From the NCBI RefSeq assembly GCF_026151205.1, contig NC_087075.1, positions 5,851,858 to 5,915,857 on the forward strand: a stretch of DNA of 64,000 nt, written 5' to 3'. A program made the translations under genes and the position numbers. Below are positions 18,801 through 64,000 of this stretch, piece after piece (position 1 is the stretch's first letter; every line of letters starts with the position of its first letter). Under the pieces are notes generated by a model. That model saw only the letters and a program-made list of their open reading frames with translations. It ran no database searches and was not told the origin of the DNA. This DNA comes from Bolinopsis microptera (lineage: Eukaryota; Ctenophora; Tentaculata; Lobata; Bolinopsidae).

Positions 18801-19336
18801 CCATCAAATGTTTGCAAAAAAATGACAAAATGTGAAACATTTTCACACATTGAAATCGAGTGACAAATTGAGCAAGGTTCACCGTTCAATGTTCTAACTT
18901 CTGTTCTATATTTGGGTCAATTGCCAATAATCAACAGTTATGAATTATGATGTTACACATATCAAACAAACTTCTCAAATGTACAAATGATCAGGTAAAC
19001 AACCTGCGAAAAGGAAAACGACAGGCTTCTCCAGAACGAGCTGAAGACGGAGAAATCTTGAATCCCTCCAACATCGAACACATCAACAAACACATGAAGC
19101 AAACCAAGGAAGAGCGACTTCAACAGGTTAGAGAAGGTAGACCTGACAAGAAGAAGTTTGGAGTGAAGAAAGCGAAGATGGATGAACACGCTAGTACCAC
19201 CAATGCTGATAAGAGGAAGATGAAGCCGTTTATGATGGTGGTTCATAAGAGGAGTGTTAGGGAGAGGACCAGGAAAGGTTTTGCTGAGAAACAGAGGGAT
19301 TTGAGGAAAAAAGCTGCTGAGGGCTGGACGGTATAA
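12881..19336 (+). CDS. SDAD1: SDAD1/SDA1 homologue, nuclear 60S ribosome biogenesis factor (11 exons)
   Basis: SDA1 proteins act in the nucleolus in maturation and export of the large ribosomal subunit. Exons: 12881-13469, 13578-13735, 13950-14078, 14462-14601, 14843-14970, 15502-15596, 15815-15925, 16247-16322, 18141-18394, 18638-18734 and 19035-19336. All junctions are GT-AG and in compatible phase, giving about 692 residues; the human protein is close to that size. Hallmarks include [19 protein letters not shown] at the N-terminus, [52 protein letters not shown] and a basic tail with [20 protein letters not shown]. Exon 9 encodes an acidic run followed by a basic, serine-rich stretch, probably nuclear-localising. 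The exon 11 acceptor is inferred: the closer candidate at 18994 would hit a stop. Intron 8 holds a 1.58 kb transposon. Confidence 0.95.
14236..14461 (+). repeat. Three decoy copies of the SDAD1 exon 4 acceptor and exon start
   Basis: The segment 'CCTTAATGTTAATG..TTTTTGCCAG|ACGTTTTCCGAGAAA' that forms the true exon 4 acceptor (AG at 14460-14461) is repeated upstream, with acceptors at about 14266, 14316 and 14366. The third decoy also copies about 60 bases of exon but has AAATAG where the true exon has AAAGAG, so using it would bring in a stop codon. The units are diverged, so the duplications are not all recent. Confidence 0.85.
14685..14815 (+). repeat. 15-bp tandem repeat (AAATATTCAAATTAA)n just before SDAD1 exon 5
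   Basis: About nine nearly perfect copies end some 25 bases before the acceptor at 14841-14842. The last unit is shortened. Units are almost identical, suggesting recent expansion. The array sits where the branch point and polypyrimidine tract would normally be. Confidence 0.9.
15690..15790 (+). repeat. 9-bp tandem repeat (AACAATGTT/AGCAATGTT)n upstream of SDAD1 exon 7
   Basis: About eleven units alternate between AACAATGTT and AGCAATGTT and end 25 bases before the exon 7 acceptor at 15814. No function is apparent. Confidence 0.85.
16118..16216 (+). repeat. 10-bp tandem repeat (ATTGTTAATT)n upstream of SDAD1 exon 8
   Basis: About nine units of ATTGTTAATT, one changed to ATTGTTAAGT, end about 30 bases before the exon 8 acceptor at 16246. 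This is another short array placed close to a 3' splice site. Confidence 0.85.
16368..17951. mobile_element. DNA transposon with 8-bp target duplication, copy 1 (in SDAD1 intron 8)
   Basis: The ends are inverted: GGGGGGTATGCAACGACC at the left, and its complement ending in CCCCCC at the right. TTTCTTAT flanks both sides (16360-16367, 17952-17959), an 8-bp target duplication. Just inside each end is a hairpin (GACCATTAATGTCAGT...ACTGACATT) followed by five to seven copies of the 10-mer ATTAATGGTC, in direct orientation at both ends. The interior, from about 16905, contains coding-like remnants also present in copy 2 (52408-54099) that end in LSDSD-stop, but no recognisable transposase. An 8-bp duplication fits hAT, P or related superfamilies; which one is not resolved. 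Confidence 0.85.
16685..16812. repeat. 28-bp minisatellite inside transposon copy 1
   Basis: About five units of TTGACTTAGTATAAATGCTT followed by GTTTGCAG. Transposon copy 2 lacks this region, so the array lies in a part of the element that is not shared. Confidence 0.75.
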
Positions 19337-51300: not shown

Positions 51301-54300
51301 CTCGGTACCACGAGAAGTTCAAATACCAGGTTTATCTTCAGTTACATAGTTCAAATACCAGGTTTATCTTCAGTTACATAGTTGAAATACCAGGTTTATC
51401 TTCAGTTACATAGTTCAAATACCAGGTTTATCTTCAGTTACATAGTTCAAATACCAGGTTTATCTTCAGTTACATAGTTCAAATACCAGGTTTATCTTCA
51501 GTTACATAGTTCAAATACCAGGTTTATCTTCAGTTACATATTTCAAATAACAGGTTTATCTTCAGTTACATATTTCAAATAACAGGTTTATCTTCAGTTA
51601 CATATTTCAAATACCAGGTTTATCTTCAGTTACATATTTCAAATACCAGGTTTATCTTCAGTTACATATTTCAAATACCAGGTTTATCTTCAGTTACATA
51701 TTATTTCTATTTGTGGAAGACTGCGTATATTTTACAAATTACAGGTTTATCTTCAAGTTCAATTATATAGTTCTACGATTAGATGGGATGTTTGCTTATA
51801 GTTTTATTTTAGGCTTGACATTTCTGATCAGTGTAATCGCCTTGACTACTAGCCTGATTTAAACTCAATATGTAAAATGTATTATAAACTGTTTAACAAT
51901 CTCTATCATCTATATTTTATATTTTATAGGAGAACCTGAAGGCGCTGCCCATGTCCACGGAAGAATGCGCGTACAGGACAAGTCTAGATGCTGTCACCAG
52001 TATTATCACGTGCAGGATGAAGCAACGTGGACCCACCGTGGAGCAAGGTCGGGAATTAAATATAATTAAATGAAAATATTAAATATTAATTAAATATTTA
52101 TATTTAATTTAATTTAGTTTATAAACTTTATTATATTTAGTCATTGCTTTGCTTCTTAGGAGCAGTGCTTGAGTTCATATTGCAAGTAGGCACCGTCATT
52201 TAACTCTCATTCTCGTTTTTTACAGGTTTGACAGCGCGGATGTCGCAGTTAGGAATGAACAATGACGGGTACCAAGGGGGGCACAACAACAACTTCCAAC
52301 CCAAATTACCCATGTACCAGGTAATTTATCTGACGGTCCAATTCTTTCAGAGTTATTAGATAAAATGGGCGTTTTCTATCACTGAAAATAACTGTTTTAC
52401 TTTGGTTGGGGGGGTTGCAACGACCATTAATAGTAGATGGAATTTTGTCAAAACTGACATTGTCATTAATGGTCATTAATGGTCATTAATGGTCATTAAT
52501 GGTCATTAATGGTCATTAATGGTCATTAAATAATTGAAATTCGTCGCACCAGATAGTGAAAGTGAAGACAAGGATCTTCATGACTTAGTTACTATAAAAA
52601 ACAAGAAAATGAACAAAAACACCTCTATTACGAAGTTCTGTAATTTTGGTAAGACGATATTTGGAAATAAAAGTCGGAGATCGAAATTTTTTGGTACCGG
52701 CTGTTTCGAGGGTTCTGTGCCATACCAACCGGGCTGCAAAAATTCTTCTAAGCCCTGTCAACGTCGAACAATTCGAAAGGGCGACTCATTAAGTGCTACC
52801 TTTGTTATGAGCAATTGAAGAAACGCATTGATGGCTGCTACACTAGAATGCTAAGGATGGCACTTAATGTGGATTGGAAGCAGCGAAAAACCAACAAAGA
52901 AGTCTATGGCAACCTACCGAGAGCAACCATGAAGATCCAAGAGCGCAGGATGCGACTAGCAGGCCATATCCACCGGCACCCAGAACTAGTCGCAAACCGC
53001 TTGCTACTCTGGGAACCAACTCATGGGGTGCGGAGTAGGGGGAGACCAGCCATGACCTATATTGAGAGCCTACGAGCTGACACGGGTCTCAACGACACTG
53101 GAGAAATGGGCGGACTTATGGCGGATAGAGTTTTATGGAGACAGCGCATCAAAACTCGGACGCTGAAGCCGCCTTAAGTCAGTAAGTCAGTTTGTTCCAA
53201 AAAAGGCTAAACGTCCCCTTCGTTGCCTCGGTACCATTTTATCAATGAGTGTCTCTGCTTCAAAAAAGGGCAACTGCAGATCTAGACGAATTCCTGCCGC
53301 ATCAATTTGTCCCTATCATGAATCATGATGACAGTGCTCGATTTTGGGTCAAAACTGCCGAAGGCAGAGTATTGAACTGTAAACGAATTGTTCTATCTAA
53401 TCCTAGGAAAAGATCAGCTTTTTTGTTGTCCGATTCAGACTGATGACGATGTATTTCATGAAGTGCTAAAGTTGAATAAGTTCATCTACTGTGTAATTAC
53501 TATATAATCGACTAGCATAATGATTTGGCCTAAATATAAATCTTGATATGATATAAGAACGGGAACGAAGTATTTAATTTTAATACCCGTGTTATTATTA
53601 TTTTATTATTGATTGTTATTTTACTATTGATACGATCTGATACTCCTAAATTGCCCTTTGAATTATTATTATTGATAACTATAATAAGTCACCAACTGTT
53701 ATCTGGTTTAAATCCCGTGGCCGCAAAATTTGTTCTTCATTACATTCGAACTTAATAAATGTAATCCCTAACTCACTCTGGAATCCACTCAAGTGATATT
53801 CTGGAAGGTCTGCCTAACCACGGAAGATTCTATTCTAAGTTTTCTCTTTCGAATCTCTAATTGTAAATGTAAAATAATAACATATACTTGTAGTTAGTTA
53901 ACTTAAGGTAGGGTCTAAATGATGCAGGCGTCCGTCCTTTTCGCTCTAAGAAGTGCCGGAAAAAACATGACCATTAATGTCAGTAGATGAAATTTTGACA
54001 AAACTGACATTGTCATTAATGGTCATTAATGGTCATTAATGGTCATTAATGGTCATTAATGGTCATTAATGGTCGTTGCAACCCCCCCCCCCCCCCCCCC
54101 CCCCCCCCCTTTGGTTCACGCTATTTAATTGGTGATGACTGTTTATTGTTTAAATGTTATCCAATTTCCTTATCTCTGCTCATCTGAGAATCCGAATTTG
54201 GTTATAGACTATAGCACTCTAATAGCACTCTAATTTAAATTTCTTACACATCTGCATATCACACTGGGTTTTCCAATTTCCTGTTTCTTATTAGCATGAC

Positions 54301-57300
54301 TTCTTTTACCAGGGTAACTACGACGGTAACTATGAAGTAGCACAGAATAATAACATGTACGGGGTTGAGCTTGGAGAGATTCTGGGTATTGGTATGTTCT
54401 TTATTCTTCTCTTTACTCTATCTAAACAGTAAACATTCCATTGAATATTTCTTCAAACCTCTTCAGACTGTTCTCATTTTTGCGGGAATTTCGAATCTTT
54501 GTTGGGACAAGTAAATACTGTTATGTCCTTAGTTATCCAACTTTAAAGTTGGAACTAAACGTTGGAACTAAAAGTTGGAACTGAACGTTACATTTTCCCT
54601 CCAGGTGAACAGACGGACGTACAGGACAGCTGCTCGGAGGTGTGGCTCCACGAGAACATGGACGTTGCCATGGAGACGTGTCTGGAGCAGTTTAACGAGA
54701 CCACATTTACCCAGATGCAGGGTTATATCCTGAGCGAGAGTGTAGGAGTGGATTACCAGCACACTGCCTCCTTCATGACCGCTCTTATGGTTAGTTTCCT
54801 TGTTGTTTACTGAATCTAATTAGCATGATTAATTAATTAACGTAGATTAAATAGATTAATTTAGTAAGACAGGTGTAGCTATTATATGAGAATACTGACA
54901 AGGCAGATCGGTTACAAATATGTTCCACTACATATCTTTGACAACATACGAATAATAATTACTGATAATTACTGATGATTACTGATAATTACTGATAATG
55001 TCCTCCCTCAGATCTCAGCAAGTAAGGGATCAGTTGAGATGGTAGAAAAACTTCTGAACCTGGGAGCCGACCCTAACGTCAGTGATCTGAGAGGACACAA
55101 CACCTACAAACATGCCGATGCTCATCCTGCGGTATGCGGAATTTACTAATTTGTATGGTCGTTAACATGGATATTGAATCATGAATGATATTCCAAATTA
55201 ACGGCACTTGTCCCTTTGATAGTTGGAATGGACGATTTCAGAGTTAAACTAGAGGATCAATATATTAAGGAAGATTAGTTGTAATTACATTTTAATTTGG
55301 TTGTGAGAAAGAATAAGACATGGAACCCAAATTATAATAATTTATATTATTACACTTAAAATTGCAGGTGATAACACTGTTGAAAGAGTTTAATTACGAG
55401 TTCGTAACGAAGAAATTTGACAACAGCGAAGAGACCAACATAATTACAAATAAAGAGGAGAAAGGCATTTTGGAAACTTACTACAAGGTTTTTATCACTA
55501 CATTTTTGGTGAATTATCTAATGTTCATCATCTTATTAAAGTAAATAATCTCATCATTTCTTGTCATGTTTGACAAGAGGTTTAATATTGACTTTAATGA
55601 TGTCAGAGCTGATTTTAGCACGAAAATAAGTGACCTCTTTATAACGCGGTTTTCCTGTACTACGCGATTTTTAAACGTTAAATCTTTCAAATCTTTCATT
55701 CCAAAAACCATGTTACAAGAGGGGACTACTGTATTTCATAAGAGTTTGTACGTACTTCTTTCATTACGCAAAAGTATTGAGCTACGGCAACTATCTCATT
55801 ATTTGTGTATCTAGTCTCTAGCCTAAACCGCGGTCTTTCTGGGTTCGATCATGATATTGTGGACTGGAAACTTGCTAAGTTGCTATAGCTTTTAAGTATC
55901 AAACTGCTATTTAAATGTTCAATTGATGCCCGATCTTCACTCATCTAGCGGCATTCAGCTTTAAGACATCCTTCTAACTCTGATTGAATATTTACAGCTG
56001 CAATTTGTATAACCTTTAACTATTCATTGACGTCGCCTGGCGGCTGGTAAACTATTAAACTAGGTAATAACGTAACCGCTCAAACCAATATAAACCCTGA
56101 CAGCGATATCAAGTCTAGTTCTTTTACCCTGGCAGACTTTGGAGAGCCAGCCTTTTGTTTCAGAAATTCTTAAAAATCTAACAGAAAATCAATTCCCTGA
56201 ATTTAATGATCCCCTGCTCGTGTTGCTAATTACTGTAGACTCACTGACTCGCATTATGCAAACTGCAAAGGGTACCTGCATTCTCCAACTGTGCACTCTT
56301 CCAGGAACACAACAACAACAATGGCGAACCTAGCAAGCTAGGATCGAGGGGCCGATCTCCTTTTCTTTTTGCGGTGCGGCCACGGTCCTTCCGGCACAGA
56401 TTTCCCTGCAGCATATTCGGGACGCAACCCCAGGCATATGTACATGTGTTACTGTTATTTTCGCAGCTCTAATAAGAGCCACTACCATTCACACCATGGT
56501 TTGGTGAGTGACGGCTGCCCATCAATTTTGAAATCTTGGCCCAACGGCCAACTGGGATTCGAACTCGCAACGTCAGGGCCAGTAGACAAGCAGATTAACC
56601 AACTAAGCCACTGAGTCTTCCAGGAAGTAGGAACCAATGCTGTTGAATTCGCACTAAACGTATTATTCGAATTAAATTCGCATACGAATTTTTTTCTGAA
56701 AATTGCCGAACTTAAAAAATATACCAAATACGGGAACAGGAAATCACGTGCCCGCATCAAAATGTTCACGAAAGTTGGCTTTGTATGGTGGAATATTGCC
56801 AAAACATGTGCTTCCCGCAACACGTGCGTGGTTACTGGTTAGTGACTAGCGTAGGTACTGACCAAGATCGCAAGGGGTTAAATTTAGATGTTAGATGTTA
56901 TCATAGTTGGTCAGTACGCACTGTACGAACTTTTAAAAGGTGCCGAACTGTACGAATTTTAAAAAGCTGTCGATGAATTTTTACCGAATTTTAAACCACT
57001 TACCACCGACCGATTTGAAAAACCTTAATCATTTGGCTTCGTCAGAGTTTTGTCGGCACTATTTGGGCACTATACAGACAGACAGACACTAGACAGACAC
57101 ACACACACACACACACACACATCTATTGAGATTATTAGTATATATTGGTTATAATATACTAGATTCGTTCGTTAATAATACTCACCGATTATAGCGAGGA
57201 AGAAGTCAATAGCAGCGATTATATTTATATAGAGCACATAGTTTTCCCAGCCCAAAACATTTTCAAGTTCAGTGATGTTCAGTCTTGGGATGTAGTGAAC

Positions 57301-60300
57301 AGTGTTACTTGGTAAATTTCATTATAGGAGCGACCCCTGATGTACAGTGGTATAAAAGTCAGTCACAAACCGATTCCGACTATTTGGAGTATAAAATAAA
57401 ATAAAATCTCGGTTATGTAATTCTCGTTATATAGCACCACGCAGGAGAAAATATCGCGTCTAGACCATCGTAAGTTTGACGCAGTTAAACTAATGGCAAG
57501 AATATACCCTCTCACAGGTTGAGATGTATCGGGAGTGGGAATACTATATGTAATTATAATCTGCTTTACAAAGTTGTTGATCTCTTTTAAATTGCACGTT
57601 CATCTATAAATGTTCAGAACTAAATTTTCTACTTTTCGATGTGCTGTGCACCTATGGAACGGTTGTTTTAGAAACAGCTTTTCAATTCAATTAAATAACT
57701 TTAAAATCTGGTTTATAAAATGCAATCGTTTAATGAGTGCTGTAGCATCAATCCTGATCTCTATGATATATTAGTAGTGATATCGCAAAGAAATCCAATT
57801 AAAATCAATGATATTGCGTCAAATGAAAATTATTTTTAGTGGTCGCTTTCTTTGAACAAAATTCTTAATGATTTTAAACCATAAAATAAATCTTGACTCA
57901 TATCTGATTTCGTGATAAATGATAATAGTACTGGTAGATAAAGAGTATTTTAACCTCGCTAAAAGCACCGGTCGTTTGAAAAGGTACTTATCTATCAAAG
58001 GCCTGACATCTGAGTTAATTTAAGACTTAAGTTCTTTCGATTAAATCCAAGTTCGAAAATTTATGAGGCGAATTTTCCCGAACTAATCCCGAACTGAAAA
58101 AAGGTGCCGAACTGTACGAATTTTTTACGACTTTTGTACGAACTGACCAACTATGTGTTTAGTGCTCTGTAATCCAAAAGTTTAATTACAGCAACAATTT
58201 AGTCGAAGTTTGAATTCTCTATCTACTTCCTACAACCCACTAGCGCTAAAATAAAAAATGACTAAATACGTCAAGCGGGCTCGTCCATTAGCAAGCACCC
58301 TGCACCCTCAAATGAGGTATTTTGTAAGTCAAAGGGAAGAAGATTATAGTTTCTAATGTTTGCATCGATGTTTAGTAAAATGGCTTTCTTAAATTAAAAG
58401 CCTTCTGTTTTCTCAGACGGTCGCATATTCCCTCTTTCCGGTCCGTGTACATTCTGTATATCACTGGAAATAGCCACGTTTTAATATGTTTATGAAAAGT
58501 TGGCCTGGACAAGTCACAAGGTTGGTAGTTCCATTAGGTTCCAGAGGTTCTGCATGCTTTGAAACCGAATTCCACTCTTTATAAGAGCACAGGAAGTTTT
58601 TACATAAATAAAGGGATCGCCGATTCATGATGGGACCAGAGAACCAGGTTGCAGCTCGATCTCCAAAAGTGCACAAGGAGCAAACGTATTCTATTGTCAC
58701 GGCCATTCCACAAAACCTGGGTTTGTCCTCCACATTTAATACAGAAACTGAAAAGGAGCTGTTGAAGGTTAACGTACACCCAAGAAATCGGGTACTCCTT
58801 CTTGTGAACCTTCCCTCCTTTTGTCTTCATCTGACTGCTCCTTATTGCCTGTAAAGAATTTATTGTATTCAGAAAATAACTATTGATATCCTTGATAAAC
58901 AGACACTCGACAAAAGAATTACTTGATACTTGTTGTCTTTTAATATATAATACAGTTTACAGTATGTATGTATAAATGCAAAATAAAGTTTAATCAAAGC
59001 ATTAAAAATGTGATGATTTTGCTCTTAGAAGCTTACTGACCAATGATCCAAAAAAGCGTCTTTGGCTCTTTCGTTTGGTATTTATGGTCTACACTGTCAC
59101 TACACTGTTTATACTTTATTTCCGGATCACCACATACATGATACCGATAATTGTCTTTAACCAAACACGAACTATCCCATCTTAGTGACGGTGTTATGGA
59201 CGAGAGCTCAATAGCTGTCTCTATAACGAGCGGTATGATAGCCGTCCTGGGAACCCTCAGCAACACCCTATCCCTCTCCTACTTCCGCCGTAAAGTCAAA
59301 TCAAACACTCGCAAACAAGGCTCTTTAACAAGGCGACTATTCATCAACCTGAACATCTGTGATTTCGTGGTCTGTGTTTCGTTTTTTGGGTGCAGTTTGC
59401 AGGATCTGATGCCGCCTTATTTTGTGCATGTGCTGATTGTTTGCACTACGATCTGTATGTTGGCCTCTTTTGTTTCAGGGTTCTTGACCTGTGTGTTAGC
59501 GGTCACGAGGACTGTCAGTTTGGTAAGACCGCTCCATGTCGTGAAATTCCGTTCAATTGCAGTTGGAATGATAGTTTTTGGGTTGATTTTGTTGGTCATG
59601 GTGCCTGCGTACATTGTATGTGATTTTGAGATTTTAAAGGGCTGGAGACATGAGTTTATCTTGGTAACTGTCAGTAGAGCAGTTAATACCGCTTTGCTCT
59701 TCGTGATTTTCTTTGTGGTCATAACATCTAACGTGGCCAGCATGGTAAAGATATACCTCTCACAGACCACAAAATCGGTTTGTGAAAAGACCGAGACAAA
59801 GACCGAGAAAAAGACCGAGACAAAGACCGAGGAAAAGACCGAGAAAAAGACCGAGGAAAAGACCTTGAGAAGACGCGCAACAGTGACAGTTGGTATTCTG
59901 TCTGTATTCTACTGTATGTGTAACATCGGGTTCCTTGTAGATCTGATCTTGAAAACGGGGAACTCCGAGAACCATGTCCCGAAGTTGGTGAGGCTGGTGA
60001 ATTTTCACGTGCTATTGACACTTAACTCCGCATGCAATCCTGTGGTATATTTCGTGAGGAAAGCTGAAATGAGGATCTACTTGAGGGACGAGTGGAGGAG
60101 GATTTCAAGAATCAAGAATAGTGGTTAAGTAAGGGAGCATAACCAGCAATGCTTCCTCAAGAGATGAGCAACTAGGTTAACTTTTAAACCAATGTCTTAT
60201 TTAAACGGAGTTGATCTGCTCCGGAGTAGAGACCAGAACAAAAGATTACCCAGAAAATATGGATAACGAAGTCCTTGTGTTTCTGCTGCTTATTGATTTT

Positions 60301-63300
60301 ATGCGATTTTTGATGTTTTGATTTACGGTCAACAAAAATAAAGGTCTAGCCAATGCTTCCGTACTCAGTTCAGTATATTTAGACAATATAATCCCTATAA
60401 TCTGTATTATTACGTTATATCCGCTTATATATCTTACAGAATGTTTACAATATATATGTTTACTATCTATCTTATCAGTGACATCATATCTTCGAGAACG
60501 TGTGCTATTGTTTACCTCTCAATTTAATTCACTGCGGACACATTTTTGGATAAAATTACAGTCAAATATGCGTATAACATCGCTGTAAATATATTTAACT
60601 TTAATTCTATCCAAAAATGAGTCATCAGAGAATTAATGAATTAATTTGAGAAGTAGGACGACGCGTGATAGAGAAAGATATGTTTTGGTACCGCTAGGTC
60701 GACAAAAACTCTTCGGTCATATTCTTATGGTTGGTGGGCTAGACAGTGAAACACGCAAATGTAGTGTATACTTCGGTCATATTGTGTGCTGAGATGAAGG
60801 ACGATACATTTATCGGAAAAACACACGTGTATAATTAATATACTGGAAAAACACACTACACGTGTTTAATAAATATAAAAATTGTATGACTCTCCTAGCT
60901 ACTTCTTTGGAGTTGGAAACGTGATCAATGTCACAAAGTTGTAAGTAAGTATAGAATTAAACTAATGACTAGGCAAAACAGATCACATTACTAGGACCAT
61001 GTTACTAGGACCATCTACAGACCAACTAATAGTTATGACAAGTTCTCTACTCCAGGTTGTGGACAGCAGCAAGGCTGATCTAGATATTATCTTCTACCTG
61101 ATATCCCTGATCCTAGACTGCCAGCAACCTGACGGCTCTGTGTTGGTCTTCCTTCCTTCTTACGATGACATTACTCGACTCAGGTTAGTTATTCAGCTTC
61201 AATTTGCGGAAATTCTCTTAGTGTTGTGAATACCAGTTTCAGGTTTCTATCTCGACAACAATTTCAGGCCTAAACACCCATTGACTGGCCAGTTCCCAAT
61301 CCACAATCAAAATGTAACTTAAACTTAAACTGAGTTTTAGAATAGAGTTTTTAAGATTCAGCTTACTTTGTGAAAATTCTCACGGCGGTTAAATACAAAA
61401 TGAACTAAAGGTATTATAGCCGTTCCAACGTTGATTAATCATCAAAATAAATTATAAAGCCTGAATCTTTCAATCTACTGGAAATTTATCAATTTGTTTC
61501 CCTTTCGCAGGTCTATGTTGATGCAAGATCAGAATATGCTGCACAAGATTCACATCTTTATGCTACACTCATCCATGCAACCTTTCGAACAGAGAAAAGT
61601 CTTCAGAAAGTCCCCGTACGGTATTAGAAAGGTAATGAAAACTTTTGAATCTTTGTATAATTTCAACATAACTGATTATAATTGGAAAGATTAAGTATAT
61701 TATTGGGATTAATGGAATCGGCTACTTCAGGCTTAATGTGGATTGTAGAAAAGTTAAGAAGGATGAGATATTAAGGCTATCGCATGTTTTTGTTGAGCTA
61801 AACCAGATGATAACACCACTATTCACCACCTGCCACCCACTATTCACCGACCACCCACTACAGGTAATATTGTCGACTGGTATAGCGGAAACAGCGCTTA
61901 CAATCGACGATGTTATGTTCGTTATTGACTCCGGCAGGATTGAGGAACGTGTCTATGATGCTAAAGCAGGTAATATGTTAATCGAAATTATTTTACTAAT
62001 TTTTATCCATAATCTATTTTAATTATTATTTTTTAAATTAATCAATTAAGTATTTTCATTGATTTCTTGGTTGTTATCTTTAAATAGATGTCACCCTAAT
62101 CTCTATCAGGACTGAACAAGTACACAACCCGGTGGATCTCTAAGAAGAGTGCTAACTACAGACGTAGTCGTGCTGGTCGCACCAACCCGGGCGTCTGTTA
62201 CCACCTCTTTAGCAAGGATAGGTGAGTTTGTTACCACCTCTTTAGCAAGGATAGGTGAGTCTGTTACCACCTCTTTAGCAAGGATAGGTGAGTCTGTTGC
62301 CACCTCTTTAGCAAGGATAGGTGAGTCTGTTACCACCTCTTTAGCAAGGATAGGTCAGTCTGTTGCCACCTCTTTAGCAAGGATAGGTGAGTCTGTTGCC
62401 ACCTCTTTAGCAAGGATAGGTGAGTCTGTTACCAGTTACCACCTCTTTAGCAAGGATAGGTGAGTCTGTTACCACCTCTTTAGCAAGGATAGGTGAGTCT
62501 GTTGCCACCTCTTTAGCAAGGATAGGTGAGTCTGTTGTCACCTCTTTAGCAAGGATAGGTGAGTCTGTTACCAGTTACCACCTCTTTAGCAAGGATAGGT
62601 GAGTCTGTTACCACCTCTTTAGCAAGGATAGGTGAGTCTGTTGCCACCTCTTTAGCAAGGATAGGTGAGTCTGATGTCACCTCTTTAGCAAGGATAGGTG
62701 AGTCTGTTACCACCTCTTTAGCAAGGATAGGTGAGTCTGTTACCAGTTACCACCTCTTTAGCAAGGATAGGTGTGTCTGTTACCACCTCTTTAGCAAGGA
62801 TAGGTGAGTCTGTTGCCACCTCTTTAGCAAGGATAGGTGAGTCTGTTGCCACCTCTTTAGCAAGGATAGGTGAGTCTGTTACCACCTCTTTAGCAAGGAT
62901 AGGTGAGTCTGTTACCACCTCTTTAGCAAGGATAGGTGAGTCTGTTACCACCTCTTTAGCAAGGATAGGTGAGTCTGTTACCACCTCTTTAGCAAGGATA
63001 GGTGAGTCTGTTACCACCTTTTTAGCAAGGATAGGTGAGTCTGTTACCACCTCTTTACCAAGGATAGGTGAGTCTGTTACCACCTCTTTAGCAAGGATAG
63101 GTGAGCATTGTAACTACGTCATCTTGTCATGACGTGGTTATCTCACGTGATTTATAATCAAACGTCTTACATCACGTGGTACTGTTTTGTCACGTGGTAC
63201 AGTTTTGAACTATTCACAAAGAAAGTTACTATTATTCTCTATGTTGGATCATGAAACTCAAAAATCAATATTTCCCGCAACCAGACAACGAATGAGTATT

Positions 63301-63538
63301 CAATTTCCAACAAAATCTTTATAACATTGGTAGAATATTTTCTTAAAATAGAAACTGTTGAACTAACAGGAATATCCCCAGGTACAAGACCCTCCACGAG
63401 GTGTCACCACCGGAACTGTTCCGAGTATCCCTCTCCGAGATAGCCCTCAACACCAAAGTGCTAGCCCCTCACAACATGCCAATAGCTGAGTTTCTCAGTA
63501 AAAGTATTGAACCTCCTGATATACCTGCCCTGAAGAAG
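21380..63538 (+). CDS. YTHDC2: YTHDC2 homologue, R3H/DEVH RNA helicase with ankyrin insertion (20 exons; 3' end beyond the window)
   Basis: YTHDC2 is an RNA helicase that reads m6A through a C-terminal YTH domain and controls germ-cell entry into meiosis. Exons: 21380-21472, 23208-23351, 23631-23732, 24974-25112, 25279-25388, 25681-25791, 33906-34052, 50694-50837, 51213-51329, 51930-52047, 52226-52320, 54313-54391, 54605-54789, 55012-55131, 55368-55487, 61056-61183, 61511-61631, 61864-61969, 62110-62221 and 63382-63538. All are GT-AG with matching phases, giving 816 codons. Domain order is R3H, RecA1, linker, ankyrin insertion, RecA2, start of HA2, as in human YTHDC2. The rest of HA2, OB and YTH must lie past the window. 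Introns 6, 7 and 15 are huge and host other genes. Several splice junctions are tandemly amplified. Confidence 0.95.
21637..23055. repeat. Composite repeat in YTHDC2 intron 1 with inverted ends and a GC-palindromic core
   Basis: ATCGACTCCCCATATCCAAA near 21637 is mirrored at about 23033-23055 (TTTGGATATGGGATCGACT), and 'AATTTCCTACATTCT' flanks both. Inside, 22101-22270 is GC-rich with CGAGCGAAGCGAGC blocks and the self-complementary GGGGGCGCAGCCCCC and GGGGCGGAGCCCC. Similar blocks (GGGGGCGAAGCCCCCG) lie at 21833-21850. A C18-type run is at about 22651-22668. It is probably nested non-autonomous elements. No coding sequence is seen. Confidence 0.55.
23208..23351 (+). CDS. YTHDC2: YTHDC2 exon 2: R3H domain
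   Basis: The exon reads [20 protein letters not shown], then [20 protein letters not shown]. This matches the R3H layout (FPSS...ERAFIH...GL.SKS.GKG.NR...). The namesake Arg-x3-His positions are altered: HEQSYII replaces the usual ERAFIHR. Single-stranded nucleic acid binding may thus be weakened, which is an inference. The preceding exon (21380-21472) encodes the lead-in [16 protein letters not shown], equivalent to the helix before R3H in human YTHDC2. Confidence 0.88.
24225..24283 (+). other. Candidate cassette exon of YTHDC2, frame not compatible
   Basis: An AG-flanked segment with a GTAAGC donor and a single open frame in each of two phases. Including it between exons 3 and 4 would shift exon 4 into a stop. 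Joining 23732 directly to 24974 keeps the frame and the similarity to YTHDC2. It is either a non-productive cassette or no exon at all. Confidence 0.25.
25279..25791 (+). CDS. YTHDC2: YTHDC2 exons 5-6: helicase motifs I and Ia
   Basis: Exon 5 (25279-25388) encodes [15 protein letters not shown], the Walker A motif I of DEAH-type helicases, with GKT intact for ATP binding. Exon 6 (25681-25791) encodes VPQYILEEA and [16 protein letters not shown], motif Ia. The order and spacing match human YTHDC2. A pyrimidine-rich stretch that includes a C10 run precedes the exon 6 acceptor. Confidence 0.95.
25978..26210. mobile_element. Palindromic MITE with TTAA target duplications (piggyBac-like)
   Basis: The 233-bp element is almost one perfect inverted repeat. 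The arms, about 108-110 bases each, begin CCCATTAGGGACGATAGGG and meet at a short loop around GGGCTTCATTATATG near 26087-26101. It is flanked on both sides by TTAA (25974-25977, 26211-26214). TTAA targets and CCC-starting ends are standard for piggyBac. The near identity of the arms suggests a young insertion, and the transcript could fold into a long hairpin in the YTHDC2 intron. Confidence 0.9.
26215..29143 (+). other. YTHDC2 intron 6, left part, no gene seen
   Basis: AT-rich intronic DNA. The segment around 27440-27510 (CGCCATCTTCAGGCTCAAAT, then TATAGTAGTGTTGAAAGTAT) shares a block with 15070-15130 in SDAD1 intron 5, so a short dispersed repeat is present. A diverged tandem 'ATGTTAAATGT.TTAAA' occurs at 26779-26880. 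None of the short ORFs looks like a gene. Confidence 0.45.
29144..32298. mobile_element. 3.15 kb non-coding element with terminal inverted repeats and a recurrent GTGAC-N5-TTTAC motif
   Basis: Ends are inverted copies of GGACACGTTCATTGAAGTTT continuing GAGGA.ATTGGTAAAT (about 35 of 36 bases matching). The left third is a tandem duplication of about 675 bp, starting at 29144 and 29819, that repeats the terminal sequence internally. The middle (about 30437-31440) is four tandem units of about 310 bp. Throughout, a 15-base motif recurs about twenty times. It reads GTAAANNNNGTCAC in the left part (for example 29473, 29636, 29780, 30112, 30267) and GTGACNNANTTTAC in the right part (for example 30485, 31098, 31418, 31556, 32081). 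The switch is near 30.45 kb. No protein is encoded. The target duplication is unclear. Confidence 0.8.
32541..32963 (+). CDS. Serine-rich small protein, single-exon ORF in a YTHDC2 intron
   Basis: From the ATG at 32541 the frame encodes 140 residues beginning [20 protein letters not shown]. The middle is dominated by Ser, Thr and Arg (about 45-115), with runs such as [18 protein letters not shown]. The end is a leucine/glutamine-rich amphipathic stretch, [15 protein letters not shown], that could form a helix. The frame may extend 25 codons upstream to 32466. Codon use looks coding rather than random. It starts just outside the 3.15 kb repeat element and lies in sense with YTHDC2. I do not recognise the family. 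It could be a nested gene, an unannotated retrocopy or a chance frame. Confidence 0.45.
   Translation: MSESTLNAGYSVTKKTLTIDPNTGDLTIETSMSPTSDGSTSRRFSASSFTRMSSATSQDLESVFNRGMVPRVYRRPSSSSTARRVSSSSESSSSNGSNGSSSFRKFTIKGGSPDTQFQLLKKLLPQLQQLHDRTQSHFEL
33294..33895 (+). repeat. 600-bp minisatellite abutting the YTHDC2 exon 7 acceptor
   Basis: It is built from interchanging short words, ACCACACAACATGTG, ACCACCATGTG and ACTAACATGTG, in higher-order blocks. One homogeneous run of seven ACCACACAACATGTG units lies at about 33682-33790. It ends at about 33895, ten bases before the exon at 33906. Long open frames on the minus strand here (HVVWS/CGHML repeats) simply reflect the repeat. Confidence 0.95.
33906..34052 (+). 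CDS. YTHDC2: YTHDC2 exon 7: RecA1 segment with motif Ib
   Basis: It encodes [19 protein letters not shown] and [17 protein letters not shown], corresponding to the IGYQIRLE...LLTFCTNGVLLR region of YTHDC2. It is isolated between an 8.1 kb intron and a 16.6 kb intron. A 600-bp minisatellite abuts its acceptor. The donor context TTGAGCAG|GTACT recurs imperfectly at about 34091-34103. Confidence 0.93.
34053..34841 (-). other. Intronic spacer downstream of the nested receptor gene
   Basis: It contains the imperfect duplicate of the exon 7 donor (about 34091). It also has the 3' flank and UTR of the minus-strand receptor, with CGTATATTCTATTATA repeats at 34760-34810. A 60-codon minus-strand frame at 34425-34607 is not convincing as a gene. 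Confidence 0.4.
34842..35392 (-). CDS. Receptor exon 10: TM5-TM7 and C-terminal tail
   Basis: TM5 reads [21 protein letters not shown] short basic loop ([20 protein letters not shown]) follows, then TM6 [20 protein letters not shown] and TM7 [19 protein letters not shown], which has the NPxxY-like NPILY. The [11 protein letters not shown] and [12 protein letters not shown] signatures are close to those of leucine-rich-repeat GPCRs and relaxin-type receptors. The acceptor at 35393 was chosen because the alternative at about 35410 brings in a stop. Confidence 0.88.
34842..46447 (-). CDS. LDLa-rich 7TM receptor with seven-copy novel ectodomain repeats, nested antisense in a YTHDC2 intron
   Basis: Ten exons: 46447-46375, 45162-44959, 43783-43342, 42806-42390, 41780-40902, 40647-40192, 40024-39554, 38943-38497, 38229-35521 and 35392-34842. 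Every junction is GT-AG in phase 1, and all internal exons are 1-1 symmetric except exon 3, which is one base too long. Order: signal peptide ([20 protein letters not shown]), a Cys-rich module, seven copies of an about 130-residue repeat, LDLa modules, a 7TM core, and a short cytoplasmic tail. The total is about 2,215 residues if exon 3 is read through. The 7TM resembles LGR/GRL101 receptors (GCKGLGVV in TM3, [13 protein letters not shown] in TM7). It would be a cell-surface receptor with unknown ligand. The exon 3 defect may make this copy a pseudogene or an assembly error. Confidence 0.85.
35521..38229 (-). CDS. Receptor exon 9: LDLa region and TM1-TM4
   Basis: The large 2709-base exon starts with an unassigned Cys-rich stretch ([14 protein letters not shown]...). 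LDL-receptor class A modules follow, canonical in [40 protein letters not shown] and [16 protein letters not shown] charged micro-repeat, [20 protein letters not shown], sits inside one module. Transmembrane helices then begin: [60 protein letters not shown] with ISRLITV in place of DRY, and [20 protein letters not shown]. Many N-glycosylation sequons (NNT, NET, NKT) support an extracellular location. Confidence 0.88.
38497..42806 (-). CDS. Receptor exons 4-8: ectodomain repeats 2 to 7
   Basis: The repeats share W+..PL...I......L.LKI.P near the start, a central W..I.FF...Y...L.I, then S.V....C, C....W..L, and a closing L.ISC.G......G..C. Exon 5 (41780-40902) holds two repeats fused; the others hold one each. 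The cysteine pairs suggest a disulphide-bonded beta-rich extracellular module. I cannot assign it to a named family. A distant relation to the farnesoic acid O-methyltransferase-like (Methyltransf_FA) module is a guess. Repeat 6 (exon 7) and repeat 7 (exon 8) are the most diverged. Confidence 0.8.
39205..39545. repeat. Intronic repeat with G-run and paired TACACCATACA blocks
   Basis: A run of about 19 G lies at 39229-39247. Two direct copies of 'TACACCATACA..AAAAAAAGGCAAAAGTGTAGT' follow, near 39263 and 39509, about 245 bp apart. It falls between receptor exons 7 and 8. Origin unknown; possibly a MITE. Confidence 0.5.
41930..42356. repeat. Dispersed repeat, short copy (partner at 6795-7635)
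   Basis: It aligns to the first and last parts of 6795-7635 with high identity but lacks the roughly 400-bp middle. The junction is near 42240-42265, where GATGTGTA leads directly into TCAATAATATTGTTATAAGT. It lies in the intron between receptor exons 4 and 5, immediately next to exon 4. Confidence 0.65.
43342..43783 (-). pseudogene. Receptor exon 3: ectodomain repeat 1, carrying a +1 frameshift
   Basis: Acceptor and donor are good, and the two halves read as one repeat: [20 protein letters not shown] then LHLKIKPT, and after the shift [14 protein letters not shown] through [18 protein letters not shown]. The exon is 442 bases, one more than the 1-1 phase needs. In the incoming frame a TAA falls at 43697-43695. 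An extra base near 43697-43706 explains both. Everything downstream in the gene is intact. Confidence 0.8.
43857..43882. repeat. Homopolymer of about 26 G
   Basis: Directly upstream of the SINE. Comparable runs are at 39229-39247 (G), 44742-44760 (C) and 54072-54099 (28 C). Such runs are prone to sequencing-length error. Confidence 0.8.
43917..44275 (+). mobile_element. tRNA-derived SINE, near full length
   Basis: The head resembles a tRNA: A box TAGCACAGTTGG, B box GGTTGCGAGTTCGAAACCC, and a pairable GCCAGG/CCTGGT at the ends of the first 77 bases. The anticodon stem does not pair, so it is not a working tRNA gene. The body contains TCAGCCGAATACTCGAG and GAGGGTTAAATGAGGAG, shared with the fragment at 300-458. 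It ends in an A-rich AAAAAAAAGATAAG tail. It sits in the intron between receptor exons 2 and 3, antisense to that gene. Confidence 0.85.
44440..44765. repeat. Fold-back repeat with GGGGCACA blocks and a C-run
   Basis: TAATCTAGCACACTTGGGGCA near 44567 and the block ending TTTTGTGCCCCAAGTGTGGC near 44735 are inverted copies around a middle of TTGGGGCA words. It ends in a C-run at about 44742-44760. Probably a small non-autonomous element. Confidence 0.5.
44959..45162 (-). CDS. Receptor exon 2: Cys-rich module
   Basis: It encodes about 67 residues with [39 protein letters not shown] and CQGD. The cysteine pattern has two CC pairs and lies directly after the signal peptide. I do not recognise the fold; it resembles small secreted Cys-rich modules. 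Phase 1-1, so shuffling-competent. Confidence 0.75.
46655..46848. mobile_element. Fold-back element (inverted arms about 45 bp)
   Basis: TGTAGTGTTCAG..GGAGCATCAC followed by GCTCTCGACAGACAAAG at 46655-46705 is repeated in inverted form at 46797-46848. The loop contains AACCGACGTTTCGGC and CCTTTTCCTAAGATTAATCTT, a motif combination often seen in invertebrate fold-back repeats. It lies just upstream of the receptor's first coding exon (ATG at 46447), so it may overlap that promoter region. Confidence 0.7.
46850..49295. other. YTHDC2 intron 7, repeat-poor stretch
   Basis: No gene is seen. At 47360-47640 a segment of about 130 bp with GTTGAATAATCTG.TGTC, ACCTTATTGGCTGCA and GAATAAT.ATAAAGTT is present twice in tandem, diverged. 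The rest is AT-rich intronic sequence and the presumed 5' flank of the minus-strand receptor. Confidence 0.45.
49296..49316 (-). other. Poly(A) signal and A-tail of the ORF1-like retrocopy
   Basis: On the minus strand AATAAATG is followed within a few bases by AAAAAAAAA at about 49300-49310, downstream of the ORF1-like stop at 49563. This fits a retroposed 3' end. Confidence 0.5.
49563..50471 (-). CDS. Orphan LINE ORF1-like protein, probable retroposed copy
   Basis: The 302-residue intact frame has a coiled-coil-prone middle ([20 protein letters not shown]...). Its C-terminal half matches ORF1-type proteins of non-LTR elements: [16 protein letters not shown], then [27 protein letters not shown], and [19 protein letters not shown]. 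This region is a nucleic-acid-binding RRM/chaperone-type fold in LINE ORF1 proteins. No ORF2 follows. The downstream minus-strand sequence ends with AATAAA and an A9 run at about 49300-49316, so it looks like a reverse-transcribed polyadenylated copy. It could also be a domesticated gene. The start is the first ATG; a second lies three codons on. Confidence 0.7.
   Translation of the reverse strand: MYIMVNKYLENLDNEIAMNYSTLKFRSMYAEQILGAQIMLLNDMRQAAGVQKSNVLRKETLNKPQITKAILCDWMETFINILDSYCSPLLFSATKPQNEIDQLKDEKIADQNTVIKLQGQLLEKKSEDLTSVQTTVKSELKAWSSVVKNSCSKALAPKKMKAALKSASEEEDRSQNLVIYGLPEKSEEILEKRVLEVLENIDEKPRIVSCCRMGRTVSDGGPAVKPIKFTLSGSDHVRRVLSKARKLREVEGYDSVYISPDRSAEQRAAFRKLVLEVKQKRELEPQRVHVIRNNKIVSSEKD
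50694..51329 (+). CDS. YTHDC2: YTHDC2 exons 8-9: motifs II and III
   Basis: Exon 8 (50694-50837) encodes [19 protein letters not shown], the DEVH-box motif II, and [16 protein letters not shown] at the motif III position. Exon 9 (51213-51329) encodes [20 protein letters not shown] and [19 protein letters not shown], matching MFLEDILRTTGY in human YTHDC2. Motif III is MTAD, not the usual SAT and not human SSAA. Both exons have tandem duplications across their donor sites. Confidence 0.93.
50777..50969 (+). repeat. Duplication of the YTHDC2 exon 8 3' part with its donor
   Basis: The last about 61 bases of exon 8 plus 22 bases of intron (50777-50859) recur without visible change at 50887-50969. 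Between them lie three to four GGTAACCA units. The duplicate carries CTTCAG|GTTTGG, identical to the true donor. The lack of mutations points to a recent event. Confidence 0.92.
51318..51701 (+). repeat. 12-copy array of the YTHDC2 exon 9 donor (32-bp unit)
   Basis: The unit is TTCAAATACCAGGTTTATC followed by TTCAGTTACATAG. Its first 12 bases are the last four codons of exon 9 (FKYQ), and the rest is the start of the intron with CAG|GTTTAT. Twelve units follow without gaps. Later ones end CATAT, and two have AACAGG in place of ACCAGG, showing local spread of variants. The true donor is taken to be the first (51329/51330) because read-through meets a stop by the end of the third unit. Confidence 0.95.
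52408..54099. mobile_element. DNA transposon with 8-bp target duplication, copy 2 (YTHDC2 intron 11)
   Basis: The ends GGGGGGGTTGCAACGACC and GGTCGTTGCAACCCC...C are inverted. CTTTGGTT flanks both sides (52400-52407, 54099-54106). Hairpins and ATTAATGGTC tandem repeats lie inside both ends, as in copy 1 (16368-17951). From about 52650 to the right end it is nearly identical to copy 1 apart from a LINE insertion at 52807-53190. The left interior differs: here it reads [20 protein letters not shown] leading into the shared [19 protein letters not shown] frame. The terminal C-run is 28 bases against six in copy 1. Confidence 0.88.
52807..53190 (+). mobile_element. 5'-truncated LINE 3' end inserted in transposon copy 2
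   Basis: The last 120 codons of a LINE reverse-transcriptase ORF are present: [60 protein letters not shown], then a stop near 53177. A short AAGTCAGT tandem tail follows. Transposon copy 1 preserves the empty site. Comparing the two shows a 6-bp target duplication, TTTGTT (52801-52806 and 53191-53196). It is a different clade from the other LINEs in the window. Confidence 0.92.
54605..55487 (+). CDS. YTHDC2: YTHDC2 exons 13-15: ankyrin insertion
   Basis: Exon 13 (54605-54789) ends [16 protein letters not shown]. Exon 14 (55012-55131) continues [20 protein letters not shown] and [20 protein letters not shown]. Exon 15 (55368-55487) begins [12 protein letters not shown]. Together these form about two ankyrin repeats placed between the two RecA lobes. 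Among DEAH helicases this architecture is characteristic of YTHDC2 (VDYRHSETSATALM in human). Confidence 0.93.
55488..56335 (+). other. YTHDC2 intron 15, left part, no gene seen
   Basis: AT-rich intronic DNA. A few frames of 60-80 codons occur on both strands but lack similarity or start/splice context. Nothing else is recognised. Confidence 0.4.
56338..56620 (-). mobile_element. tRNA-derived SINE (second family)
   Basis: On the minus strand the head reads GACTCAGTGGCTTAGTTGG (A box) and, about 45 bases on, GACGTTGCGAGTTCGAATCCC (B box). A body with TGGGCAGCCGTCACTCACCA follows and reaches about 56338. Its body differs from the SINE at 43917-44275, so it is a separate family. Confidence 0.75.
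56621..59150 (+). other. YTHDC2 intron 15, middle part, no confident gene
   Basis: AT-rich with a (CA)n microsatellite after GACAGACA units at 57069-57121. Two near-repeats of 'GGTGCCGAACTGTACGAATTTT' lie at about 56939 and 58105, with 'GGTCAGT.CG.ACTGTACGAACTTT' related blocks, suggesting an element spanning roughly 56.9-58.16 kb. Minus-strand frames at 58461-58830 look coding-like (Cys-rich) but I cannot assign them. Confidence 0.4.
59151..60128 (+). CDS. Class A (rhodopsin-like) GPCR, intronless, nested in a YTHDC2 intron
   Basis: A single-exon 325-residue frame has seven hydrophobic segments: TM1 [22 protein letters not shown]2 [22 protein letters not shown]3 around [22 protein letters not shown]4 [20 protein letters not shown]5 [20 protein letters not shown]6 [20 protein letters not shown], and TM7 [20 protein letters not shown] with the NPxxY variant NPVVY. 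The DRY motif is TRT. The third intracellular loop holds a low-complexity [17 protein letters not shown] run, with Lys and Glu alternating, that looks like a recent micro-repeat expansion. The N-terminus is short, so a small-molecule or peptide ligand is likely; none can be named. The start could instead be the in-frame ATG at 59196. It lies in sense with YTHDC2. Confidence 0.85.
   Translation: MSLTKHELSHLSDGVMDESSIAVSITSGMIAVLGTLSNTLSLSYFRRKVKSNTRKQGSLTRRLFINLNICDFVVCVSFFGCSLQDLMPPYFVHVLIVCTTICMLASFVSGFLTCVLAVTRTVSLVRPLHVVKFRSIAVGMIVFGLILLVMVPAYIVCDFEILKGWRHEFILVTVSRAVNTALLFVIFFVVITSNVASMVKIYLSQTTKSVCEKTETKTEKKTETKTEEKTEKKTEEKTLRRRATVTVGILSVFYCMCNIGFLVDLILKTGNSENHVPKLVRLVNFHVLLTLNSACNPVVYFVRKAEMRIYLRDEWRRISRIKNSG
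60129..61055 (+). other. YTHDC2 intron 15, right part
   Basis: 3' flank of the GPCR and intronic DNA. A short duplication of 'TACTTCGGTCATATT' occurs near 60712 and 60769, and 'AAAACACAC.ACACGTGT' near 60818 and 60846. No gene is seen. Confidence 0.4.
61056..62221 (+). CDS. YTHDC2: YTHDC2 exons 16-19: RecA2 lobe, motifs IV, V and VI
   Basis: Exon 16 encodes [16 protein letters not shown] (motif IV). Exon 17 encodes [17 protein letters not shown]. Exon 18 encodes [20 protein letters not shown] (motif V). Exon 19 encodes [20 protein letters not shown] (motif VI). Motif VI is usually QRxGRAGR; here the Gln is Tyr and the first Gly is Ser. The two terminal arginines, including the likely finger, remain. 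The last 28 bases of exon 19 and its donor are the seed of a 33-bp tandem array. Confidence 0.95.
62194..63104 (+). repeat. About 27-copy array of the YTHDC2 exon 19 donor (33-bp unit)
   Basis: The unit is GTCTGTTACCACCTCTTTAG followed by CAAGGATAGGTGA. Its first 28 bases are the end of exon 19 (VCYHLFSKD plus the split Arg codon), and the remainder is intron with the donor AG|GTGAGT. The first unit is the coding one (donor at 62221/62222). About 26 more follow, with small variants (GTTGCC, GATGTC) and a few units enlarged by six to nine bases (GTTACCAGTTACCACC). The 33-base length keeps the frame, but every unit carries an in-frame TGA just after the donor. Confidence 0.96.
63382..63538 (+). 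CDS. YTHDC2: YTHDC2 exon 20: start of the winged-helix/HA2 region
   Basis: It reads [20 protein letters not shown], then [19 protein letters not shown], matching human TPELLRMPLQELCLHTKLLAPVNCPIADFL. It ends with DIPALKK|GTACGT, and this 3' edge with its donor is repeated at least nine more times up to the window end. The next exon is outside the window. Confidence 0.93.
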
Positions 63539-64000
63539 GTACGTGAGTTTGTATGTTTGTTTGTGATATACCTGCCCTGAAGAAGGTACGTGAGTTTGTC
63601 TGTTTGTTTGTGATATACCTGCCCTGAAGAAGGTACGTGAGTTTGTCTGTTTGTTTGTGATATACCTGCCCTGAAGAAGGTACGTGAGTTTGTCTGTTTG
63701 TTTGTCACTGATATACCTGCCCTGAAGAAGGTACGTGAGTTTGTCTGTTTGTTTGTGATATACCTGCCCTGAAGAAGGTACGTGAGTTTGTCTGTTTGTT
63801 TGTTTGTGATATACCTGCCCTGAAGAAGGTACGTGAGTTTGTCTGTTTGTTTGTCACTGATATACCTGCCCTGAAGAAGGTACGTGAGTTTGTCTGTTTG
63901 TTTGTGATATACCTGCCCTGAAGAAGGTACGTGAGTTTGTCTGTTTGTTTGTCACTGATATACCTGCCCTGAAGAAGGTACGTGAGTTTGTCTGTTTGTT
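63519..64000 (+). repeat. At least 10-copy array of the YTHDC2 exon 20 donor (46-50-bp unit), running off the window
   Basis: The unit is GATATACCTGCCCTGAAGAA then GGTACGTGAGTTTGTCTG and a few GTTT words. It starts with the last seven codons of exon 20 (DIPALKK) and includes the strong donor AAG|GTACGTGAGT. Units differ mainly in the number of TGTTTGTT words and an optional CAC. Ten are visible up to base 64000. Read-through from the first donor hits TGA inside the next CCCTGAAG. Confidence 0.96.

What the first reader, a model, noticed from the sequence alone, without database searches (positions are those of the whole stretch)
51318..64000. Splice-junction minisatellites: three YTHDC2 5' splice sites amplified as tandem arrays with the exon edge
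At exons 9, 19 and 20 the array unit straddles the exon-intron border, so each copy contains the last 12-28 exonic bases and a complete donor (about 12, 27 and at least 10 copies). Random intronic minisatellites should rarely start inside an exon, let alone three times in one gene. The spliceosome faces dozens of equivalent donors, and only the first preserves the protein. This could be a mechanism-driven process (break repair or replication slippage seeded at splice-site DNA, R-loops at donors). It could also be a tolerated but regulatory source of non-productive transcripts.
Basis: seen in the sequence. Interest (0 to 1): 0.88.

Follow-up and report, generated by a model that had tools for sequence, protein, structure and literature searches.

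The report
Splice-donor minisatellites at exon edges
In a minisatellite-rich animal genome, probably a comb jelly, the end of an exon and its 5' splice site have been copied in tandem at several borders of one gene and at some other genes; this is a known but rarely reported kind of repeat ("mirage" minisatellites of amphioxus), here seemingly commoner at 5' than at 3' splice sites.

Summary
A YTHDC2 model with one open frame shows arrays starting inside exons 9 (12 x 32 bp), 19 (27 x 33 bp) and 20 (at least 10 x 47/51 bp). Every downstream donor tested gives a premature stop. The genome (264.65 Mb) is full of minisatellites (about 20% of 180 kb sampled), so some border arrays are expected. 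Triplets of the donor word MAGGTDAGT form 10 distinct arrays in 12.46 Mb, against 13 in 111.2 Mb for two scrambled words (6.9-fold; 3.6-fold, P=0.007, when the one scramble whose single copies I counted is normalised). An acceptor word gives 27 places in 264.65 Mb. Seven of the ten donor arrays begin at a coding exon end, by frame. Whether splicing or the word itself is behind the excess is open (10/17 array sites against 7/20 isolated sites genuine, P=0.13). Extra donors are not more conserved than neighbouring columns, so no regulatory role is supported. The kind is known: amphioxus "mirages", human IFI6. New are several cases in one gene, a distant lineage, and a donor-against-acceptor count. 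RNA is the missing evidence.

The parts
23208..63538 (+). YTHDC2 gene, 19 exons modelled (y1, y2, y4-y7, E8-E20; y7 = exon 7); the YTH domain lies about 10 kb beyond the window
   Evidence: continuous open frame and GT/AG borders; YTHDC2 relatives; YTH matches at C4:5925853-5926020 and 5926110-5926259
51316..51700 (+). donor-spanning array of exon 9 (exon 51213-51329): 12 x 32 bp, 14 nt exonic + 18 nt intronic per unit, donor CAG|GTTTAT; one more donor-bearing remnant at 51744
62193..63105 (+). donor-spanning array of exon 19 (exon 62110-62221): 27 copies, 33-bp unit with three 40-bp units, 29 nt exonic + GTGA; donors 24 GTGAGT, 1 GTCAGT, 1 GTGTGT, 1 GTGAGC; frame meets TGA just after the first donor
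63517..64000 (+). donor-spanning array of exon 20 (exon 63382-63538): at least 10 copies of 47/51 bp, 22 nt exonic, donor AAG|GTACGT; followed by 5000 N
50774..50970 (+). exon 8 donor (exon 50694-50837) duplicated once: two identical 83-bp copies (64 nt exonic + 19 nt intronic) separated by a 31-bp filler of AGGTAACC units
34045..34128 (+). exon 7 donor (exon 33906-34052) duplicated once, 41-bp unit by TRF (donors 44 nt apart), 8 nt exonic, diverged (84% matches)
14232..14526 (+). acceptor-spanning array in SDAD1 exon s4 (exon 14462-14601): four acceptor copies, the last one at the exon
   Evidence: relative P0233 has the same protein sequence across this junction

Best explanation
These are 'mirage'-type minisatellites: short tandem duplications (about 25-115 bp) whose first unit straddled an exon-intron border, later expanded by ordinary minisatellite turnover. 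Duplications at a donor are tolerated because the original donor stays first, is transcribed first and is joined to the intact exon; the others lie in the intron as unused decoys. At an acceptor the functional copy must be last, behind competing upstream copies, so acceptor arrays are purged more. On top of tolerance, DNA bearing the donor word seems to enter arrays more often than other DNA in this genome. Shown: anatomy, frame consequences, the excess of the donor word over two scrambles and an acceptor word, lack of extra conservation of the extra donors. Inferred: which donor is used, neutrality, and that a bias at donors rather than the word itself causes the excess.
For: Anatomy and open frame; later donors nonproductive; acceptor arrays keep the functional copy last (SDAD1 s4; CLASP-like gene in the sample). 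Minisatellite-rich genome: TRF covers 3-69% of 18 stretches of 10 kb, mean 20%. Donor word MAGGTDAGT: 10 distinct arrays in the listed part C1:0-12.46 Mb against 5 in 51.5 Mb and 8 in 59.8 Mb for two scrambles, ratio 6.9, P=3.6e-5; normalised to single copies of the second scramble (18905 against 11373) 3.6-fold, P=0.007. Acceptor word YTTTCAGRT: singles 2.3x its reverse (21145 against 9204), yet 80 against 75 triplet matches and 27 array places in the whole genome; donor over acceptor 8.8-fold per single copy, P=1.5e-6. 7 of 10 donor arrays start at a coding exon end by reading frame, one beside a Pfam SHMT match ending one residue before the donor (E=1.1e-24). Extra donors not more conserved. 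Proteins of relatives join exon 19 to 20 and SDAD1 s3 to s4 without array sequence, though it is unknown whether those relatives carry the arrays.
Against: The coverage null shows no excess of borders inside duplications. In the 180-kb sample, border arrays (2 found) are about what a rough hand estimate gives for chance. Raw triplet matches: donor 3111, its reverse 126, scrambles 553 and 875, their reverses 507 and 465, so per single copy the donor word is only 2.1 times the second scramble. Border arrays alone (7) against that scramble: 2.5-fold, P=0.065. Single copies of the first scramble were not counted. Of the donor-word arrays inspected 10 of 17 are genuine donors against 7 of 20 isolated words, P=0.13; array sites were judged by eye and frame, isolated ones by a codon score (by that score 6 of the 10 pass). 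For exact CAGGTGAGT 4 of 8 listed arrays are borders, two of them paralogues. Distinct arrays were counted by hand from truncated listings, and the first scramble can contain a donor-like string. No RNA was available.
Confidence: 0.65

Rival explanations
1. Pure chance plus tolerance: in a genome with so many minisatellites some units must straddle borders, purifying selection removes arrays inside exons, and YTHDC2 is simply an extreme case picked by eye.
For: About 20% of sampled sequence is tandem repeat; coverage null not exceeded; 2 border arrays found in 180 kb is near a rough hand estimate for chance; border arrays alone exceed the normalised scramble only 2.5-fold, P=0.065.
Against: All donor-word arrays exceed the normalised scramble 3.6-fold (P=0.007) and the acceptor word 8.8-fold; 5 of 19 window families on borders against 0.56-1.02 expected.
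Confidence: 0.3
2. Functional array: multiple U1 binding sites downstream of an exon strengthen its first donor or suppress premature polyadenylation, so the arrays are selected for.
For: U1 binding at an intronic site downstream of PAH exon 11 enhances its splicing and is not or only marginally used as a splice site (PMC5933811, passages). Donor arrays exceed acceptor arrays.
Against: Donor columns in extra copies are not more conserved than other columns; array donors are of mixed strength (GTTTAT, GTGAGT, GTACGT).
Confidence: 0.08
3. Sequence-intrinsic: the donor consensus (AGGTDAGT-like) is itself prone to slippage or microhomology-mediated duplication, whether or not it is spliced.
For: 7 of 17 inspected donor-word arrays are not at donors; the difference in genuine fraction is not significant; the exon at L031 holds a GTTAGT that could act as microhomology with the donor (by eye).
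Against: The reversed word is 25-fold rarer in triplets; window arrays include off-consensus donors (GTTTAT, GTTTGG, GTACTT); no hairpin tendency beyond shuffles in three units.
Confidence: 0.27
4. Assembly artefact of repeat collapse or expansion.
For: A 5000-N run begins at the base after the window end, inside the exon 20 array; a draft assembly of an amphioxus mirage was reported as aberrant (PMC3087553, passage).
Against: Arrays carry internal variants and unit-length variants (33/40, 47/51), and independent loci on C1, C3 and C9 show the same architecture.
Confidence: 0.04

Closest known systems
'Mirage' minisatellites of amphioxus (Adh3; globin genes BflGb6 and BflGb9): passages of PMC3087553 seen; the original Adh paper is not held
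   Same: Minisatellite-like tandem duplications of exon-intron boundaries, at 5' and 3' borders, units of similar length, authentic border at the edge of the array.
   Different: Here probably a ctenophore, five donors of one gene, and a count suggesting donor over acceptor bias; haplotype and somatic instability and RT-PCR are not available here.
Human IFI6 (6-16) minisatellite providing multiple splice donor sites (Turri et al. 1995; seen only as a citation and one sentence in PMC4526556; the paper itself is not held)
   Same: Tandem repeat units that act as donors at an exon end.
   Different: In IFI6 downstream repeat units are reported as used donors; here each downstream donor tested would give a premature stop.
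Human internal tandem repeats at exon-intron boundaries in segmental duplications (PMC2812944, passages including part of the abstract)
   Same: Minisatellites (units of about 30 bp) at exon-intron borders that expanded recently.
   Different: There they are tied to novel introns and alternative transcripts; no new intron is seen here.
Intron gain by tandem duplication (potato RdRp, PMC4974935, abstract)
   Same: A tandem duplication crossing an intron-exon boundary supplies extra splice signals.
   Different: Here the reading frame is continuous with one exon per border; no gained intron found.

Membership tests
Mirage minisatellite | tandem repeat unit spans an exon-intron boundary | tested here: met
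Mirage minisatellite | both 5' and 3' boundaries can be involved | tested here: met
   YTHDC2 donors and SDAD1 s4 acceptor; CLASP-like acceptor
Mirage minisatellite | unit length in the reported range (10-72 and 150-160 bp) | tested here: met
   32, 33, 41 and 47/51 bp are inside the first range; 95 and 114 bp fall between the two
Mirage minisatellite | regular splicing of the mRNA is kept | not testable with these tools
   no RNA; only in-silico frame and relatives' proteins
Mirage minisatellite | length instability between haplotypes or in soma | not testable with these tools
   one assembly, no reads
IFI6-type multi-donor minisatellite | downstream repeat donors are used in mRNA | not testable with these tools
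   no RNA; predicted to be nonproductive
Intron gain by tandem duplication | a new intron inside former exon | tested here: not met
   one continuous frame through 19 exons with a single exon per border

The most novel reading that the evidence does not exclude
In this lineage functional 5' splice sites are mutational hot spots for tandem duplication (a splicing- or transcription-linked break or template switch near the donor), which has decorated perhaps hundreds of exon ends with redundant donors; acceptors are spared because upstream copies would compete first.
Probability: 0.28. Interest if true: 0.82.

Novelty: new member of a known kind. Interest (0 to 1): 0.54.

Why it matters
The amphioxus work calls the origin of border-spanning minisatellites unclear and lists only a few genes. 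A genome in which such arrays recur makes the question countable: donor against acceptor, expressed against silent genes, first against later copies. It is also a natural test of how a spliceosome picks one donor among dozens of equal ones, and of tandem duplication as a source of new splice sites.

Tried and rejected
Rfam on the window at gathering cut-offs: no family. DNA hairpins of three doubled units: none beyond shuffles. Microhomology at array edges: no common motif seen. Conservation of extra donors: none. Literature: ten searches; those naming ctenophores or Bolinopsis listed no paper on minisatellites at splice sites, judged by titles and abstract starts; led to the amphioxus mirages. 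Raw triplet counts were set aside as the main measure because single arrays dominate them; distinct arrays were counted by hand. Set aside: six of 28 duplication families with under about 1.5 copies; L027 replaced by L036 (same array, true start); L037 (54-bp unit) lies outside the triplet spacing and is not in the 10; L061, L063, L065 and L066 were fetched but not scored for conservation, L074 only shows array interior. The 70 arrays per Mb used for expected values is a hand merge of 20 TRF rows in 180 kb; with all 20 rows the expectation rises by about 1.6. A triplet search for AAGGTAAGT did not complete. Taxon: inferred from memory ('sb/' identifiers as Pleurobrachia models, 13 large contigs and 264.65 Mb as Bolinopsis-like); no tool named the species.

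Full report
What is there. The window (G000:C4:5851858-5915857 of a 264.65-Mb, 232-contig assembly) carries SDAD1 (11 exons modelled, 12876-19336) and YTHDC2 (19 exons modelled, 23208-63538) on the + strand. The YTHDC2 exons join into one 785-aa frame; the named relatives are mostly annotated YTHDC2. The closest protein, P0001, is 82% identical over 182 aa and joins exon 19 to exon 20 directly. SDAD1 has a 96%-identical relative of equal length from a 2321-bp contig (P0233), too short to hold the introns, with the same sequence across the s3/s4 junction beside the acceptor array. My typed SDAD1 model has a misread stretch near the s10/s11 junction, where the computed join shows a stop. Whether P0001's or P0233's species carry the arrays is unknown.

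The arrays. Exonic overlap is 14, 29 and 22 nt. Two more donors of the gene are duplicated: exon 7 (41-bp unit, diverged) and exon 8 (two identical 83-bp copies separated by a 31-bp filler of AGGTAACC units). Thus 5 of 19 modelled YTHDC2 donors carry a tandem copy. SDAD1 exon s4 shows the mirror case: three copies of the acceptor with exon edge precede the real one. Each downstream donor tested leads to a premature stop; in exon 19 the frame meets TGA immediately after the first donor.

Is it more than chance? Raw coverage says no: 5-11% of non-exonic points lie in a local duplication, against 3-5 of 29 donors and 1 of 29 acceptors. But a border can only lie in the terminal copy of an array. 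Counted so, 5 of 19 tandem families in 12.8-64 kb sit on borders against 0.56-1.02 expected (Poisson P 0.0039, or 0.0005 without the 312-bp family; circular shift 0.0008; viable placement 0 of 3000). These 19 come from 22 of 28 detected families, those with at least about 1.5 copies, with three units set by hand; the exon 7 pair was not detected there. Placing each of 36 arrays at random inside its own intron gives 2.7 crossings against 6 (P=0.009), and 7.3 within 30 nt of a border against 14 (P=0.0002). The locus was chosen for its look, so these are not independent tests.

The genome. In 18 stretches of 10 kb at round coordinates TRF covers 3-69%, mean 20%. A scan for AGGT in the first unit with codon-like sequence upstream puts four of the five window donor arrays among its top rows, with one false row on the minus strand of the exon 20 array, and finds one more, L014:8986-9281, in a gene with a weak DUF4139 match. 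Exon 8 is not found by TRF. An acceptor scan ranks SDAD1 s4 first and finds one more, on the minus strand of L013, in a gene with a CLASP_N match in a later exon. Two in 180 kb is roughly what a hand estimate from array density gives for random seeding.

The word test. Three copies of MAGGTDAGT at 21-51 bp spacing occur 3111 times in the genome, the reversed word 126 times, while single copies differ only 1.3-fold (18905 against 14544). Scrambles give 553 and 875 triplets, their reverses 507 and 465. Large arrays dominate such counts, so I counted distinct arrays by hand in the truncated listings: donor word 10 in 12.46 Mb; scramble GTMAGDTGA 5 in 51.5 Mb (it can contain CAGGTGA); scramble TGMGADGTA 8 in 59.8 Mb. 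The pooled ratio is 6.9, P=3.6e-5. The second scramble has 11373 single copies; normalised to that the ratio is 3.6, P=0.007, and 2.5, P=0.065, for the seven border arrays alone. An acceptor word YTTTCAGRT, with 21145 single copies against 9204 reversed, gives 80 triplets against 75, listed in full, and 27 array places in the whole genome; the donor word is 8.8-fold above it per single copy, P=1.5e-6.

Are these arrays at real donors? Flanks of the ten were read. Seven begin at an exon end by frame: L026 (coiled-coil-like), L036 (transporter-like), L028 (C2H2 zinc finger, Pfam), L031, L032 (weak EF-hand match, 3 nt exonic), L033 (SHMT, E=1.1e-24) and L034 (2-3 nt exonic); L026, L031, L034 and L036 have no Pfam match. 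Three do not: L029, L030, L035. L037 (weak Sushi match) is a further border array outside the spacing. By the codon score used for isolated words 6 of the 10 pass. For exact CAGGTGAGT, 4 of 8 listed arrays are borders, one already counted and two of them paralogues. Together 10 of 17 are genuine by eye, against 7 of 20 isolated words by codon score; P=0.13. So there is an excess for the donor word, moderate after normalisation, and only a hint that splicing itself is behind it.

How it most likely works. A short duplication spanning the border occurs, then expands. The first donor, transcribed first and attached to the intact exon, is kept; the rest is intron. Extra donors vary as much as other columns (2.9% against 1.7% and 2.3%, ten sets from nine arrays; without one poorly aligned array 2.1, 1.7 and 1.8%), which speaks against selection for them. 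The donor against acceptor contrast fits order of synthesis: unused donors come after the good one, unused acceptors before it. This is inference; no RNA was seen.

What is known. Amphioxus 'mirage' minisatellites are the same kind by definition (PMC3087553, passages). Human IFI6 and human segmental-duplication genes have related repeats (PMC4526556, passage; PMC2812944, passages). The Hormiphora californensis ctenophore paper reports that TRF marks 13% of that genome and 2357 nested intronic genes, in line with the setting here (PMC8527503, passages). The window's taxon is my inference from memory.

Noticed in passing
window, 29 donors of YTHDC2 and SDAD1: Donor consensus here favours T at +3 (14 of 29; MAG|GTTAGT) where A or G is usual (usual consensus recalled).
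   Followed up: partly
14958-14972 and 15130-15144: The SDAD1 s5 exon end with its donor (ACTTTCATATCAG|GT) recurs 172 bp downstream inside the intron: a possible decayed donor copy.
   Followed up: partly
59151-60125: A single-exon rhodopsin-like 7TM receptor (Pfam 7tm_1) is nested in a YTHDC2 intron on the same strand and has a coding 12/24-bp repeat.
   Followed up: no
about 16380-17945 and 52420-54080: Two similar elements bounded by (GTCATTAATG)n arrays, one in a SDAD1 intron and one in a YTHDC2 intron: likely a mobile element with tandem-repeat ends.
   Followed up: no
after 64000 (C4:5915858-5920857): Exactly 5000 N begin at the base after the window, inside the exon 20 array; assembly gap or withheld stretch, not known.
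   Followed up: partly
around 19000 (SDAD1 s10/s11): The joined frame breaks near this junction compared with relative P0233: sequencing error, polymorphism or a border I misplaced.
   Followed up: no
L008, L011, L035, 50857-50889, exon 19 unit: A GGTAACC/GGTTACC-like motif recurs in unrelated tandem repeats of this genome.
   Followed up: no
L072 and L073 (C9:1817890-1818500, C9:1884590-1885200): Two copies of one gene about 67 kb apart carry the same donor array in an exon with an insulin-like cysteine pattern (by eye; no Pfam match): the array probably predates the gene duplication.
   Followed up: partly
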